From NCBI GenBank assembly GCA_030671985.1, contig DAOVHI010000028.1, forward strand, positions 1-12,925: a DNA stretch of 12,925 nt, read 5' to 3'. The position numbers and the translations under genes are program-made. This document shows, in pieces, positions 6,231 through 11,201 of the stretch. A model generated the notes under the pieces. The model saw nothing but the letters and a program-made list of their open reading frames with translations. It did not search any database and had not been told where the DNA came from. The first letter of the stretch is position 1; the number at the start of each line of letters is the position of its first letter. This DNA comes from JAHJDO01 sp030671985 [NCBI: bacterium]. GTDB lineage: Bacteria; JAHJDO01.

Positions 6231-6706
6231 AGCTCTTTGACATGCAGACTAACAATTGCCTGTGCAGCGACAGCTTTTCCCTCTCCTATTGGTCCAAGCT
6301 GTTCGTATGTTTTAGCTTTTATGCTTATTGTATCTTTTTCAGTGTTTAATGCTTTGGCAATGTTCAATTTCATATTATCAATATAGGGCGACATCTTGGG
6401 CTTTTCTGCAAATATGATGGTATCAATATTGTTAATTTCCATGTTCTCCATGCGTAAGATAGGATCTATTTCTTCAAGGAATTTGAGGCTGGATATGCCT
6501 TCAAAAAGTGGGTCATCATCCGGAAAATGTTGACCAATGTCGCCTTTATTTAGTGCGCCAAGAATCCCGTCACATATGGCGTGAACCAGAACATCTCCGT
6601 CAGAGTGAGCTTCTAATCCGAATATAAAAGGAATCTTCACTCCGCCTATAATGAGATCACGGTTCATAACTAATTTGTGTATATCGTAGCCTATTCCGAT
6701 TCGCAT
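6227..6706 (-). CDS. ispF: 2-C-methyl-D-erythritol 2,4-cyclodiphosphate synthase
   Basis: IspF cyclises CDP-methylerythritol 2-phosphate, releasing CMP, in the MEP isoprenoid pathway. With the start at 6706 the protein has 159 residues, the family norm. The zinc ligands D8, H10 (GYDIH) and H42 (VLVHA) fall at the usual numbers, and the SDGDVLVHAICDGILGAL signature is present. TYEQLGPIGEG near the C-terminus is the conserved nucleotide-side loop. An in-frame TTG at 6712 is possible but lies only 3 nt from the ribosome site; the ATG at 6706 has a 9-nt spacing and gives the standard MRIGIGYD start. It overlaps ispD by 16 bp and polX by 4 bp. Confidence 0.97.
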   Translation of the reverse strand: MRIGIGYDIHKLVMNRDLIIGGVKIPFIFGLEAHSDGDVLVHAICDGILGALNKGDIGQHFPDDDPLFEGISSLKFLEEIDPILRMENMEINNIDTIIFAEKPKMSPYIDNMKLNIAKALNTEKDTISIKAKTYEQLGPIGEGKAVAAQAIVSLHVKEL

Positions 6707-7377
6707 TTGCAATTTCCTCCAAATAATTTAAATTGTTTTTGGTCTGTAATTTTTATGTTCGTCTCAGAGCCTGGAACTATCCTAACGGGATAGTTTAATT
6801 GTTCCACCAAAGAGGCATCGTCCGTTCCTGAAAACTTGTTTTTATTAGCTTTTTGATAGGCGGTTTTTATTAGATCATATCTAAATACCTGAGGAGTTTG
6901 AACCCGCCATAAATTATTTCTATCAACGGTTTTCTCAATGCAATTATCTTTAACCAGTTTTATTGTGTCGAATAAAGGAAGCCCTATTACCGCCGCGCCA
7001 TGCTTATGAGCGGCTTCTATTGATTTGCGAATAAGCTCAGACGTAATAAATGGTCTTACTGCATCGTGAATTAATATAATATCAGGCGTATTTTTAATAC
7101 CCATAAGTCCATTATAAACTGATTCCTGTCTTGTTTTGCCTCCGCAGACAATCTTCGAAACTTTTCTAATGTTGTGTTTTTGAATCAGCAAGCGCGATTT
7201 TTCTATGTATTTTTTACCTGAAATCAGAATGATTTCATCTATGCATTTCGTCTTATCGAGTATGTTTAGTGTGTGAATGAGAACAGGTTTGCTGCCTAGG
7301 TCAAGATATTGTTTTGGAAGGGCGGCTTTCATCCTTGCCCCAAAACCGGCATTAGGAACCAGTGCACATACTCTCAT
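6691..7377 (-). CDS. ispD: 2-C-methyl-D-erythritol 4-phosphate cytidylyltransferase
   Basis: IspD joins CTP and methylerythritol 4-phosphate, the third step of the MEP pathway. Its 228 residues match the family length. The N-terminal nucleotide loop is VPNAGFGARM (7-16) with R15, followed by K22 in LPKQYL; N9 stands where most relatives have alanine. CGGKTRQESV (78-87), IHDAVRPF (103-110, D105) and the TDD motif in FSGTDDASL are conserved. The start codon shares one base with the stop of the V-ATPase subunit D gene (TAATG), so the two are probably translationally coupled. The next gene is ispF, as in many bacteria. The remaining MEP genes are not in the window. Confidence 0.96.
   Translation of the reverse strand: MRVCALVPNAGFGARMKAALPKQYLDLGSKPVLIHTLNILDKTKCIDEIILISGKKYIEKSRLLIQKHNIRKVSKIVCGGKTRQESVYNGLMGIKNTPDIILIHDAVRPFITSELIRKSIEAAHKHGAAVIGLPLFDTIKLVKDNCIEKTVDRNNLWRVQTPQVFRYDLIKTAYQKANKNKFSGTDDASLVEQLNYPVRIVPGSETNIKITDQKQFKLFGGNCKCESE
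6716..6720 (-). promoter_or_regulatory. ribosome binding site that sets the ispF start
   Basis: GGAGG on the minus strand, inside the 3' end of ispD, ends 9 nt before the ATG at 6706 and only 3 nt before the alternative TTG at 6712. This spacing selects the ATG. Confidence 0.75.
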
Positions 7378-8001: not shown

Positions 8002-9048
8002 TCAAATCTTTCTCATCGCTCTCATGTAGGAATTGTAATTTCGTTTCATCTCTTTAATGCTGTCTCCGCCAAATTTTTCGCACATAGCGTTCGCAATTTC
8101 AAATGCCACGACTGCTTCGCCTACAACGCTTGCGGCATAAACCGCGCAAACATCGGAACGTTCTACCTTTGCCTTAACAGGTTTCTTTGTAATTATATCT
8201 ATTGAGTTGAGAGCTTTTTTAAGGGTTGGAATGGGTTTCATTGCTCCGCGAATAACTATATCCTCTCCGTTTGAAATGCCTCCTTCAATTCCACCTGCAT
8301 TATTAGTCTTACGTTCAAAATTGCAGTCATAAGTTATTTCATCGTGTACCTTAGAACCGGGGCTTTTTGATACAGCAAATCCAAGACCTATTTCAACGCC
8401 CTTTATTCCCTGAATGCTCATCAAGCATCGAGCCAGTCTTCCATCCAGCTTTCTGTCCCAATGCACATGAGATCCTAGTCCTACAGGGACATTCTTTACT
8501 GTTACTTCAAATATGCCTCCCAGGCTATCGCCGTTTTTTTGCGCGTGGTCTATTTTTTCTCTCATTAGTTCTTTATTTTCATCTACTCCGCCAATTTCGC
8601 ACACACAACTTGTAACCTCTATGCCGAATTTACTCAGCAGGTTTTTAGCGACAGCGCCAACTGCGACTCTGGCTGCCGTTTCGCGGGCGCTTGACCGTTC
8701 GAGGATATTTCTTATATCTAATTGATTGTACTTCAGCATACCCGCAAGATCTGCATGTCCCGGTCTGGGATTTGTTATGGGAGATTCATTTTTCCAGTTC
8801 TGCCAATCCTTGTTTTTTATAGTCATTGTAATCGGGGAGCCAAGCGTCAATCCTCTGCGCAGCCCGGAGGTTATTTGAACGGTATCATGCTCAATTTGCA
8901 TTCTTTTACCTCTGCCATATCCTGATTGTCTTCTTGCAAGTTCTCTATTTATCGCTGTCTTATTTATTCTCAATCCGGCTGGCATACCTTCAAGGATACT
9001 TGTAAGACTTTGTCCATGTGATTCACCCGCTGTTAGATAACGCAACAT
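8002..9048 (-). CDS. aroC: chorismate synthase
   Basis: AroC removes phosphate from EPSP to make chorismate, the last shikimate-pathway step, and needs reduced FMN. The chosen start gives 348 residues. [12 protein letters not shown] at the N-terminus holds catalytic H11; [21 protein letters not shown] and [14 protein letters not shown] are family signatures, and the second active-site region is in the C-terminal half. A longer frame reaches back to 9129, but that would add 27 unrelated residues and overlap pyrE; the ATG at 9048 is right because a strong ribosome site sits 7 nt upstream. It starts 17 bp after pyrE. The need for reduced flavin is notable given the flavodoxin two genes upstream, although no link is shown. 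Confidence 0.97.
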
Positions 9049-9065: not shown

Positions 9066-9644
9066 TTATGTTTTCTTCCTGCTTCCCGGCTTTACTAAGG
9101 GAATTCCACCTTTTTCGCATATTGAACAATTATCAGAGTTATAATTTTTAAAAACCAGTTTAGCCAAACTCTTAAATTCTACAGGAAAGCTGATAGCTTT
9201 CTCGCTTCTGTCAATTATTGAGCCAACGCCAACAATACGGCATTTAAAATCTTTCAAAGCCGCAATAACTTCCCCGGTTGAACGGCCTGTAGTAACGATA
9301 TCTTCAATAATGAGTACCTGTTCTTCTTTTTTAATTTCAAAACCTCTACGAAGAATCATTTTACCGTCTTTTCTTTCGCAAAATACAGCTCTAATGCCTA
9401 GCGCTCTGGCAACTTCCTGTGCAATTATAATTCCTCCGATTGCAGGAGACACAACTACATCGCATTGTGTGTGTTGAAAAAGTTCTGCAATCGCTTTCCC
9501 AAGTTTAGTTCCATGCTCCGGATACTGAAGAACCTTAGCGCATTGAATATATTGGCTGCTGTGAAGACCTGAAGAGAGCAAAAAATGTCCTTCAAGAAGA
9601 GCCTCGCATTTTCTAAAGAGATCCAGAACTTCCGTTTGTTTCAT
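9066..9644 (-). CDS. pyrE: orotate phosphoribosyltransferase
   Basis: PyrE attaches orotate to PRPP, making OMP for PyrF, in pyrimidine synthesis. Its 192 residues are normal. [17 protein letters not shown] (19-35) begins the substrate region, CERKDGK near 89-95 is the flexible catalytic loop, and [13 protein letters not shown] (110-122) is the PRPP-binding motif. The C-terminal [18 protein letters not shown] extension is a form found in several deep bacterial lineages. It starts 2 nt after the stop of the PilZ-flavodoxin gene, with an AAGGA upstream inside that gene. pyrF lies just beyond, so the last two steps of UMP synthesis flank the PilZ-flavodoxin gene. Confidence 0.96.
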
Positions 9645-9646
9645 TA

Positions 9647-10495
9647 TTATAATATTCCTTCCATAAACTCGTTTACTCTATCATTAACATCCTGCGTATT
9701 TTTTAAGTCTCTTTGCGCAATTAATAAAGAATGCAGGGATTTTATTTTCTTATGTTCTAACATTTTGTTAACAATTCTCACGGCTCTACCCTTTCCCGTA
9801 CCGCTTCCGTATGTATAAAACGCTGCAACCTTTTTCCCATCAAGCCCGTAACATTTATCCAGATAGGTATTTAATGCCGGCGCCGGACTGAATGCCCAAA
9901 CAGGGGAGCCAAACCATATCATGTCATACATGCTCAGGTCACAATTAACATCACCGATATTCACTCTTTTTCTTTGCAGAGCGGTCATGCCCTGTCCTGC
10001 GAATGTACTGGCTCCGTCAACAGGTTCTAATCTCACTAAATCAACTTCAAAATTTTTATGTTTCAATTCTTGTGATATTATTTGAGCTAGCTGCTGTGTA
10101 TTTCCTGTTAATGAAAAATAGACTATGCATGCCTGCATTTTCTTCTCCAATTTCATTTTTAAGAATTTATTTAATCTTCTCTTAAAACGCGGATAAACTT
10201 TTTTAAATTCTACTCCTGTTAGATATCTGTTTTTCCCGATTTTTTCAACTCGTCTAACCTCTGATAGCGCATAAAAAGAGCGGGTTTCTTCTTTTGCTCC
10301 AAAGTCTTGCGGAAATTCCAGTTCAAGCTCTAATTCAGCCTCTACAGGATAGAGAATATCTGTTTTGAAACATAGTCCGATTTTACTAATATCTACAACA
10401 TTGCTGTCACAAAGATCCATTCTATATTCATGCTTAGCGCAGATCTTTAAATTTACGTTAATTCTTACGTGTTTTCGTTTCGGTGCTTCGTTCAT
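9647..10495 (-). CDS. PilZ-domain / flavodoxin fusion protein, with possible internal flavodoxin start
   Basis: A 282-residue protein of two parts in one uninterrupted frame. Residues 1-115 resemble a PilZ domain, the family that binds cyclic di-GMP: the RxxxR motif is RKHVR (7-11), and the D-x-S-x-x-G motif is DISKIG (35-40). A strand-rich region and GVEF (94-97) follow. Residues 120-282 form a complete flavodoxin: MQACIVYFSLTGNT holds the FMN phosphate loop SLTGNT (128-133), GSPVWAFSPAP near 197-207 and YTYGSGTGKG near 228-236 are cofactor-side loops. The two parts meet at a basic helix (about 99-119). An internal ATG at 10138, with GGAG six bases upstream, would produce a separate 163-residue flavodoxin. 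Its start overlaps pyrF by 38 bp; the RKHVR motif requires that start. Function of the fusion is unknown. Confidence 0.85.
   Translation of the reverse strand: MNEAPKRKHVRINVNLKICAKHEYRMDLCDSNVVDISKIGLCFKTDILYPVEAELELELEFPQDFGAKEETRSFYALSEVRRVEKIGKNRYLTGVEFKKVYPRFKRRLNKFLKMKLEKKMQACIVYFSLTGNTQQLAQIISQELKHKNFEVDLVRLEPVDGASTFAGQGMTALQRKRVNIGDVNCDLSMYDMIWFGSPVWAFSPAPALNTYLDKCYGLDGKKVAAFYTYGSGTGKGRAVRIVNKMLEHKKIKSLHSLLIAQRDLKNTQDVNDRVNEFMEGIL
10145..10148 (-). promoter_or_regulatory. internal ribosome binding site before the flavodoxin domain
   Basis: GGAG followed by AAGAAA and then ATG (10138) lies inside the PilZ-flavodoxin frame, exactly where a free-standing flavodoxin would start (MQACIVYFSLTGNT). 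Spacing is 6 nt. This is better than the site at the full-length start at 10495, where no clear Shine-Dalgarno is seen. It may allow a second product. Confidence 0.5.
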
Positions 10496-11201
10496 TAAGT
10501 TCTTTTATCACCTTTTCCATTGCGTGCTCGTGGTTGGAAGCTTTAGTAATAGATCTTCCAACTACTATTAAATCAGCGCCTTCATTAATAGCCTGCGCGG
10601 GAGAAGCTGTTCGTTTTTGATCGTCTTTATCCGAATCTTGAAATCTTATGCCCGGTGTAACGATCAAAAAGTCCTCTCCGCATATTTGCCTAATATATTT
10701 TATTTCTTCCGAAGATGCAACAACGCCATTCAATCCTGCTATTTTTGCCATTTTTGCAAGATGCGAAACATGTTCTTTTGTGGAAATTTCTATCTGTAGA
10801 TCATTTTTTAGAATTTCCTCATCTATGCTGGTGAGAACGGTAACGCCTAAAAGAATGGTTTGAGAATGCGCCGCTTCATACGCAGAACGCATCATCTCTA
10901 TTCCGCCGGATGCATGCATTGTAAGCATAAAAACGCCCATTTTAACGGCATTGCCAACTGCCAGTGCAACCGTGTTGGGAATATCATGAAACTTTAAGTC
11001 TAAAAATACCTTACAGCCTTTGTTATGAATAAAATCTATAATATCAGGTCCCTGGCTTGTAAATAGCTGACTTCCTACTTTAAAAACGGATACGTAATCC
11101 TTAAGTTCTTCCACAAGCATTTCAGCCTGTTTCGGATTATCTACATCCAGTGCTATAATCACAGGGGATTTTAAGGAATTTAATTCTTTTTTAGCTGTCA
11201 T
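10458..11201 (-). CDS. pyrF: orotidine 5'-phosphate decarboxylase
   Basis: PyrF decarboxylates OMP to UMP, the last step of pyrimidine synthesis. The 247 residues are of the normal bacterial size. IALDVDN (16-22) begins the barrel, FKVGSQLF holds K41, and LDLKFHDIPNT (67-77) carries the catalytic set D68, K70, D73. PGIRFQ near 190 and VVGRSI near 220 bind phosphate. The C-terminal tail (NERSTETKTRKN) is encoded in the 38-bp overlap with the PilZ-flavodoxin gene. No good Shine-Dalgarno precedes the ATG; a plausible promoter just upstream would give a leader of only about 8 nt. Confidence 0.96.
   Translation of the reverse strand: MTAKKELNSLKSPVIIALDVDNPKQAEMLVEELKDYVSVFKVGSQLFTSQGPDIIDFIHNKGCKVFLDLKFHDIPNTVALAVGNAVKMGVFMLTMHASGGIEMMRSAYEAAHSQTILLGVTVLTSIDEEILKNDLQIEISTKEHVSHLAKMAKIAGLNGVVASSEEIKYIRQICGEDFLIVTPGIRFQDSDKDDQKRTASPAQAINEGADLIVVGRSITKASNHEHAMEKVIKELNERSTETKTRKN

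What the first reader, a model, noticed from the sequence alone, without database searches (positions are those of the whole stretch)
9647..10495. PilZ domain joined in frame to a flavodoxin, with a built-in second start site
Seen: one 282-codon frame with RKHVR and DISKIG of a PilZ domain in the first 40 residues and a full flavodoxin from residue 120. An ATG preceded by GGAG at 6 nt sits precisely at the usual flavodoxin N-terminus. Known: PilZ domains bind cyclic di-GMP and flavodoxins carry electrons by FMN. Inference: the gene may yield both a cyclic di-GMP-sensing flavodoxin and a free flavodoxin, tying redox supply to second-messenger level. Its place between pyrF and pyrE, upstream of the reduced-flavin-dependent enzyme AroC, is also unusual.
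Basis: partly seen in the sequence, partly recalled or inferred. Interest (0 to 1): 0.65.

Follow-up and report, generated by a model that had tools for sequence, protein, structure and literature searches.

The report
PilZ-flavodoxin fusion with relic start codon
A gene in an uncultured bacterial genus joins a sensor domain for the signal molecule cyclic di-GMP to a small electron-carrier-like protein, suggesting that a lifestyle signal may directly control electron supply, though no one has tested it.

Summary
Window 9647-10495, minus strand, is one 282-codon frame: PilZ (residues 6-112) followed by a complete flavodoxin-type domain (120-282). The same fusion is in 5 of 5 genomes of the genus returned (76-87% identity, dN/dS about 0.2 in both halves), so it is no assembly error. 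The cyclic di-GMP motifs and the FMN phosphate loop are kept, and the genus encodes GGDEF cyclases. No other fusion appeared in 380 other genomes plus partly overlapping samples of 7, 5, 285 and 398. Its parts exist apart elsewhere: stand-alone flavodoxins whose start codon falls on Met120 in 20 of 23, and a stand-alone pilZ (G385) whose tail matches the fusion up to Met120. The join is thus pilZ tail directly onto a flavodoxin start codon. Whether Met120 still starts a free flavodoxin is unproven: GGAG lies 6 bases upstream in 5 of 5, but within PilZ-tail codons, and about 10% of internal Mets have such a site. PilZ is a portable module in this genus, joined also to an ABC ATPase, PTS EIIA, Ser/Thr kinase and FHA. 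Most likely a cyclic-di-GMP-responsive flavodoxin: a new variant of a known kind (PilZ-effector fusion); biochemistry untested.

The parts
9647..10495 (-). PilZ-flavodoxin fusion gene, 282 codons
   Evidence: ORF; Pfam; open in 5 of 5 genus genomes returned
10160..10480 (-). PilZ domain, residues 6-112
   Evidence: PF07238, 30.1 bits, above cut-off. In the genome search the fusion's PilZ was listed in G001-G004; the window's own was not among the 7 listed for G000
10463..10477 (-). RxxxR motif (RKHVR, residues 7-11), c-di-GMP switch motif
   Evidence: sequence; kept in the 4 genomes where this part is present
10376..10393 (-). DxSxxG motif (DISKIG, residues 35-40)
   Evidence: kept in 5 of 5
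10136..10225 (-). codons 91-120: stretch of low synonymous change up to and including the internal ATG
   Evidence: permutation P 0.0046, uncorrected, not unique in the operon
10145..10148 (-). GGAG, possible ribosome-binding site for the internal start; overlies codons of the PilZ tail
   Evidence: present in 5 of 5, GGAGGAG in G002; tail homologous to stand-alone PilZ of G385
10136..10138 (-). internal ATG, Met120
   Evidence: kept in 5 of 5; on the start codon of 20 of 23 stand-alone relatives
9650..10138 (-). flavodoxin-type domain, residues 120-282
   Evidence: PF12682, PF03358, PF00258 above cut-off; stand-alone relatives, best E 2e-45
10097..10114 (-). FMN phosphate-binding loop SLTGNT, residues 128-133 (motif function recalled)
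   Evidence: kept 5 of 5; S128 23/24, G131 23/24, T133 24/24 with stand-alone relatives
9878..9910 (-). subfamily signature GSPVWAFSPAP, residues 196-206
   Evidence: P198 and W200 in 24/24
9782..9811 (-). subfamily signature YGSGTGKGRA, residues 229-238
   Evidence: G230, S231, G232 each 23/24, G234 24/24
10458..11201 (-). pyrF, orotidine 5'-phosphate decarboxylase, overlaps the fusion by 38 bases
   Evidence: PF00215; same order in G002, G003, G004
9066..9644 (-). pyrE-type phosphoribosyltransferase
   Evidence: PF00156; follows the fusion in G001-G004
8002..9048 (-). aroC, chorismate synthase
   Evidence: PF01264; AGGAGGT six bases before its ATG

Best explanation
It is a genuine fusion protein in which an N-terminal PilZ domain binds cyclic di-GMP and, through the PilZ tail that runs straight into the flavodoxin, alters the availability, partner choice or location of the attached FMN-carrying domain. 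It arose when a stand-alone pilZ frame lost its stop and was joined directly to the start codon (Met120) of a complete flavodoxin gene. Shown: the fusion, its conservation in the genus, purifying selection on both halves, intact binding motifs, GGDEF genes in the genus, unfused counterparts of both halves elsewhere, and the match of Met120 to their start codons. Inferred: binding of cyclic di-GMP and FMN, and coupling between them. A second, free flavodoxin from Met120 is possible but unproven.
For: Fusion without a stop in 5 of 5 genus genomes returned. dN/dS 0.195 for PilZ residues 16-112 and 0.180 for the flavodoxin part, against 0.12-0.16 for pyrF, pyrE and aroC. RxxxR and DxSxxG kept. GGDEF family matches in 5 of 5 genomes, GG[DE]EF intact in 9 of 10 loci scanned. 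PilZ joined to other effectors in the same genus. Met120 column is Met in 18 and GTG-coded Val in 2 of 23 stand-alone relatives. Stand-alone PilZ of G385, 33-39% identical over 87-90 residues, ends in MELEKLIEK where the fusions read MELEKK-Met120 or KLEKK-Met120; it lies beside a PAP2 gene 46% identical to the window's. The fusion is the only Flavodoxin_4 match in 5 of 5 genomes and the only Flavodoxin_1 match in 4 of 5.
Against: No biochemistry. The structure prediction was too poor to use (pLDDT 45.6, 3 sequences), so neither binding site was modelled. The flavodoxin part scores far below the NCBIfam cut-offs for named flavodoxins, so its electron-carrier role rests on family resemblance. 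The end of the flavodoxin part is less constrained (dN/dS 0.33-0.46 in its last two blocks, mainly through G002). G004 has a separate 157-residue flavodoxin frame. Known only from one genus of 5 metagenome-assembled genomes.
Confidence: 0.6

Rival explanations
1. Two-product gene (a stronger form of the best explanation): translation from the first ATG gives a PilZ-flavodoxin and from Met120 a free flavodoxin, so that a cell has a regulated and an unregulated pool.
For: Met120 sits on the ancestral start. GGAG at 6 nt in 5 of 5, GGAGGAG in G002, while the fusion's own first ATG has no such site in the window, G003 and G004. The stand-alone PilZ of G385 encodes the same tail residues L-E-K without GGAG (CTT GAA AAA). 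Codons 91-120 have low synonymous change, 1.67 against 4.98 expected, P 0.0046 uncorrected; 20- and 25-site windows there rank first of 1580 and 1540. No second copy of this flavodoxin subfamily in the genus.
Against: 55 of 569 internal Mets have a site of 4 or more bases. GGAG overlies PilZ-tail codons, so it is not an inherited flavodoxin leader. The PilZ part as a whole also changes little (P 0.009), polX ranks first for 15-site windows, and aroC and polX stretches come close in the others. GGAG is unpaired in the predicted fold in 4 of 5, paired in G002; in the window the local fold (-7.1) is no more open than the internal-Met median of -6.5. Invariance of one Met among close relatives says little.
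Confidence: 0.27
2. The PilZ part still binds cyclic di-GMP but only tethers the flavodoxin, or has no effect on it; the internal start is a dead relic.
For: Met120 is what a gene join would leave behind. No redox partner gene is shared by the neighbourhoods scanned.
Against: Both halves and both PilZ motifs are under purifying selection and stay joined in 5 of 5 genomes.
Confidence: 0.3
3. Assembly error or frameshift joining two genes.
For: All five genomes appear to be metagenome-assembled (contig counts; two record titles say MAG).
Against: Same frame in five genomes, 76-87% identical to the window, with a one-codon indel in the linker that keeps the frame in G002.
Confidence: 0.02
4. The flavodoxin part supplies reduced flavin to chorismate synthase AroC encoded one gene further downstream.
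For: Gene order fusion-pyrE-aroC is kept in G001-G004; chorismate synthase needs reduced FMN (recalled).
Against: pyrF, pyrE, an ATP-synthase subunit D gene, ispD, ispF and polX lie in the same run of genes, so the order alone points to no single partner (ispD, ispF and polX named from recall). Stand-alone relatives examined have other neighbours.
Confidence: 0.08

Closest known systems
PilZ-domain effector fusions (BcsA cellulose synthase; CsdK1/CsdK2 PilZ-DnaK of Myxococcus xanthus)
   Same: A PilZ domain with the RxxxR and DxSxxG motifs in one chain with an effector. PMC10313047 (abstract and passages seen) calls the PilZ-DnaK chaperones unusual; PMC10333796 (passages seen) says PilZ domains are often fused into multidomain proteins such as enzymes.
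   Different: The effector here is a flavodoxin-type domain. I found no PilZ-flavodoxin in the held papers.
Stand-alone flavodoxins of the same subfamily (Flavodoxin_4 / FMN_red superfamily)
   Same: Phosphate loop SxTGNT, VWAFSPxPA and TYGSGxGK signatures, about 160 residues, 31-44% identity over the domain. Closest solved chain by sequence 2mwm/3edo.
   Different: The fusion carries a PilZ domain before the ancestral start codon. The domain scores well below NCBIfam cut-offs for named flavodoxins.
Stand-alone PilZ of G385 (L169 6013-6468)
   Same: Best PilZ match outside the genus, tail alignable up to Met120, PAP2 gene beside it.
   Different: Has its own stop and no flavodoxin on the 8.9 kb contig; the PAP2 neighbour is divergent, and pyrF, pyrE and aroC are absent from that contig.
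Flavodoxin-ferredoxin (EFR1-type) fusions
   Same: A flavodoxin domain joined to a second domain; frames of this look (CxxCxxC clusters, named by eye) occur in L131, L135 and L137-L140.
   Different: The partner is a C-terminal iron-sulfur domain, not an N-terminal PilZ.

Membership tests
PilZ domain (PF07238) | Profile score above the curated cut-off | tested here: met
   30.1 bits against 22.5; fusion's PilZ above cut-off in G001-G004
PilZ domain (PF07238) | RxxxR and (D/N)xSxxG motifs | tested here: met
   RxxxR in 4 of 4 genomes where that part is on the contig, DxSxxG in 5 of 5. Motif definition seen in passages of PMC10333796
PilZ domain (PF07238) | Binds cyclic di-GMP | not testable with these tools
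   GGDEF genes in the genus make the ligand plausible only
Flavodoxin-type proteins | Profile score above cut-off and complete domain | tested here: met
   FMN_red 32.4, Flavodoxin_4 31.9, Flavodoxin_1 32.1 bits; stand-alone relatives align over the domain. With PF00258 the truncated-contig genome G001 is below cut-off (19.2 bits)
Flavodoxin-type proteins | FMN phosphate loop (S/T)x(S/T)GxT | tested here: met
   SLTGNT at 128-133, kept 5 of 5
Flavodoxin-type proteins | Flavodoxin fold in a confident model | tested here: inconclusive
   AlphaFold with 3 sequences, pLDDT 45.6
Flavodoxin-type proteins | Binds FMN and carries electrons | not testable with these tools
   needs purified protein
Named flavodoxin models of NCBIfam | Score above curated cut-off | tested here: not met
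   best PRK07116.1 44.7 bits against 198; flav_short 44.2 against 123
Gene with internal translation start | In-frame start codon with ribosome-binding site at a domain boundary, above chance | tested here: inconclusive
   GGAG at 6 nt, 5 of 5; background 55 of 569; synonymous-change P 0.0046 uncorrected

The most novel reading that the evidence does not exclude
A single gene gives two forms of one electron carrier: a cyclic-di-GMP-gated PilZ-flavodoxin and, from the retained ancestral start at Met120, a free flavodoxin. In a genus where PilZ has also been joined to a lipid-transport-type ATPase, PTS EIIA, Ser/Thr kinase and FHA modules, cyclic di-GMP would act directly on core redox and transport metabolism rather than only on motility and surface life.
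Probability: 0.2. Interest if true: 0.75.

Novelty: new variant of a known kind. Interest (0 to 1): 0.5.

Why it matters
Cyclic di-GMP is best known for switching bacteria between swimming and surface life. A conserved PilZ-flavodoxin would be a direct wire from that signal to electron flow. The genus offers several parallel PilZ fusions, so the idea that PilZ is a portable control module for metabolism can be tested with purified proteins. The exact join of a pilZ tail to a flavodoxin start codon gives a clear case for asking whether gene fusions keep making the unfused product.

Tried and rejected
Assembly artefact: rejected, fusion in five genomes. Split genes in near relatives: none in the genus. 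The search for relatives goes from same genus straight to same domain, so no sister genus could be examined.

Fusions elsewhere. Outside the genus the complete lists hold no match that covers both domains in one open frame. Long frames were looked at: 12 with 240 or more residues (11 fetched, one held as L007), one of 240, 10, and L031 (363 residues). A frame of 252 residues in G094 (E 9.5e-4) was not fetched. Seven further loci whose match runs upstream of residue 100, most of them through stops, were fetched. A PilZ HMM built from genus sequences found PilZ in 3 of 85 loci outside the genus (L110, L017, L018, each brought in by a PilZ-part match and without a flavodoxin match in the stretch) and in 0 of those 7; the control fusion locus was found. 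Matches weaker than the E limits, and PilZ joined to an unrelated flavodoxin type, would be missed.

Functional partner by neighbourhood: 62 of 98 frames listed for 23 stand-alone loci (the 98 include the flavodoxins) were scanned with Pfam and showed no shared redox partner; the table shows 25 of its 47 families. Seven loci share an upstream gene; the 4 scanned match TIGR00375 below its cut-off.

Internal start: SD scan, synonymous change and folding give a suggestive, not significant, picture. Window against relatives, synonymous difference in codons 91-120 is 0.06-0.19, in the other 30-codon blocks 0.23-0.69. Background frames are any frame of 200 or more residues and may include non-genes. 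PADLOC: only weak Csm6 matches, E 0.002-0.003. Plasmids: 30 records with a partial match, none covering 80% of the query.

For these I lowered the two-product rival from 0.30 to 0.27 and the novel case from 0.22 to 0.20. The phylum of the window and of G288 is not named by any search.

Full report
The sequence. Window 9647-10495 on the minus strand is one frame of 282 codons. Pfam places PilZ at residues 6-112 and flavodoxin-type families within 124-261, above their cut-offs. pyrF overlaps the gene start by 38 bases; pyrE and aroC follow.

Conservation. The window lies in a 1.25 Mb assembly of 152 contigs. The four other genomes of its genus returned by the search carry the fusion, 76-87% identical to the window over 267-280 residues; in G001 the contig ends inside the PilZ part. 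Contigs of the same length as two of them are public MAG records named CSMAG, a prefix used by a cold-seep catalogue (PMC10491686, passages seen). The order pyrF-fusion-pyrE-aroC is kept in G002, G003 and G004, and fusion-pyrE-aroC in G001. Pairwise codon comparison gives dN/dS 0.195 for PilZ residues 16-112 and 0.180 for the flavodoxin part, somewhat above pyrF, pyrE and aroC (0.12-0.16), with the flavodoxin's last two blocks looser at 0.33-0.46. Both halves are kept as protein.

Motifs and signal. RxxxR is present in 4 of 4 genomes where that part is on the contig, DxSxxG in 5 of 5. Of 21 PilZ sequences aligned (19 of the 49 PF07238 matches, plus two of the flavodoxin fusion), RxxxR is in 21 and (D/N)xSxxG in 18. 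GGDEF matches occur in 5 of 5 genomes; 9 of 10 loci scanned show an intact GG[DE]EF.

PilZ as a module. One search lists 5 to 13 PilZ matches per genome; it did not list the window's own PilZ, which passes the cut-off, so these are lower bounds. Pfam confirms four further architectures on one example each: PilZ plus ABC ATPase, PTS EIIA plus PilZ, protein kinase plus PilZ, and FHA plus PilZ. The PilZ-ABC fusion is found in 5 of 5 genus genomes (83-85% identity), while in the rows listed for other genomes only the ABC part matches. It lies on the same contig as a GGDEF gene in 5 of 5, about 3.5 to 15 kb apart, and in G000 among genes that look like MlaE and MlaD (names recalled). So the flavodoxin fusion is one of a set.

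Where else. A profile of the five fusions searched in 385 genomes (325 genera) covered both domains only in the five of the genus, 0 of 380 others. Further samples gave 0 of 7, 0 of 5, 0 of 285 and 0 of 398 (the sets overlap in part). The flavodoxin subfamily itself is common as a stand-alone gene: 97 of 285 genomes of one large phylum have a match at E up to 1e-6, the best at 2e-45, and those with E below 1e-20 lie in frames of 157-215 residues. Longer frames elsewhere carry no PilZ. The fused domains form one clade with support 1.000 in a FastTree of 28 sequences and are 31-44% identical to 23 stand-alone relatives.

The unfused PilZ. G385, of the small phylum of G254, has a 152-residue stand-alone PilZ frame. 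It is 33% (window) and 39% (G003) identical over 87-90 residues to the fusion's PilZ, and its last residues MELEKLIEK align with MELEKK before Met120 of the fusions, ending within about four residues of the join. A PAP2 gene, 46% identical over 168 residues to the one two genes upstream of the fusion in the window, lies divergently beside it. No flavodoxin, pyrF, pyrE or aroC match lies on that 8.9 kb contig, and no flavodoxin match appeared in that genome (84% complete) at E up to 0.001. I read it as a likely unfused counterpart; PAP2 is a common family and the order is not the same, so this is not proven.

The internal start. Against 23 stand-alone flavodoxins the Met120 column holds Met in 18 and GTG-coded Val, taken as the start, in 2; two have their ATG one codon earlier and one is cut by its contig. 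With the PilZ evidence, the join is pilZ tail directly onto a flavodoxin start codon. GGAG lies 6 bases before Met120 in 5 of 5; G002 has a one-codon insertion giving GGAGGAG. GGAG overlies the PilZ-tail codons for L-E; G385 encodes the same residues as CTT GAA, without GGAG. Against a strong claim: 55 of 569 internal Mets in the genus loci examined have a site of 4 or more bases, compared with 29 of 97 first ATGs. Codons 91-120 vary less at synonymous sites than expected (1.67 against 4.98, P 0.0046 uncorrected), and 20- and 25-site windows there rank first among 1580 and 1540 over 8 genes; but polX leads for 15-site windows, aroC and polX come close in the others, and the PilZ part as a whole is low too (P 0.009). 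GGAG is unpaired in 4 of 5 predicted folds; the fold around the start is open in four genomes and ordinary in the window. I put a live second start at about 0.27.

Free flavodoxin. PF12682 finds only the fusion in 5 of 5 genomes; PF00258 finds only the fusion in 4 of 5, and a further 157-residue flavodoxin frame in G004. If the genus needs a free flavodoxin of this kind, the internal start would be its only source found in four of the five, though ferredoxins or other flavodoxin-type families may serve instead (not searched).

Mechanism. The reading I favour: cyclic di-GMP binds the N-terminal PilZ, whose C-terminal helix runs directly into the first strand of the flavodoxin (secondary structure from a low-confidence model), so that binding could shield or expose the FMN edge or a partner surface. 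Fusion, conservation and motifs are shown; ligand, cofactor and coupling are inferred. No redox partner could be named from gene context.

Literature. Searches for PilZ with flavodoxin found no such fusion in the held library (listings); one co-occurring paper mentions flavodoxin only in its references (PMC9765421); the other co-occurring papers were seen as listings only. PilZ-DnaK chaperones (PMC10313047, abstract and passages) and statements on PilZ in multidomain proteins (PMC10333796, passages; PMC12564702, passages) are the nearest precedents. Subscription papers and domain databases were not searchable, so absence from print is limited to these searches.

Verdict. A real, genus-wide fusion and a new variant of a known kind. 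The dual-product idea is plausible and testable but not established.

Noticed in passing
L069 5223-6380, minus (G000:C87): PilZ domain fused to the N-terminus of an ABC ATPase (MlaF-like by recall) in 5 of 5 genus genomes, on the same contig as a GGDEF gene in 5 of 5; only the ABC part matches in the listed rows of other genomes.
   Followed up: partly
L067, L078-L080, L073, L075: Other PilZ fusions in the same genus: PTS EIIA-PilZ, Ser/Thr kinase-PilZ, FHA-PilZ; one example of each checked with Pfam.
   Followed up: partly
L169 6013-6468 minus and 6579-7184 plus (G385:C19): Stand-alone PilZ gene beside a divergent PAP2 gene, both similar to genes of the window; likely unfused counterpart of the fusion's PilZ half.
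   Followed up: partly
L034 5941-6048, L035 2781-2888, L037 10966-11073: In three relatives the fusion frame stays open 36 codons further upstream; the DNA there has paired TTCGGATTT-like repeats, also seen in L081 before another gene, so it may be untranslated spacer.
   Followed up: partly
L118-L121, L123, L125, L129: Seven stand-alone flavodoxins of the large phylum lie directly after a conserved 400-430-residue gene; the 4 scanned match TIGR00375 (171-210 bits, cut-off 326.6).
   Followed up: partly
L084, L085: Two stand-alone relatives lie beside a response-regulator-like gene and a DUF520/YajQ-like gene (L084 scanned, L085 by eye); YajQ proteins have been reported as cyclic di-GMP effectors (reference title seen).
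   Followed up: no
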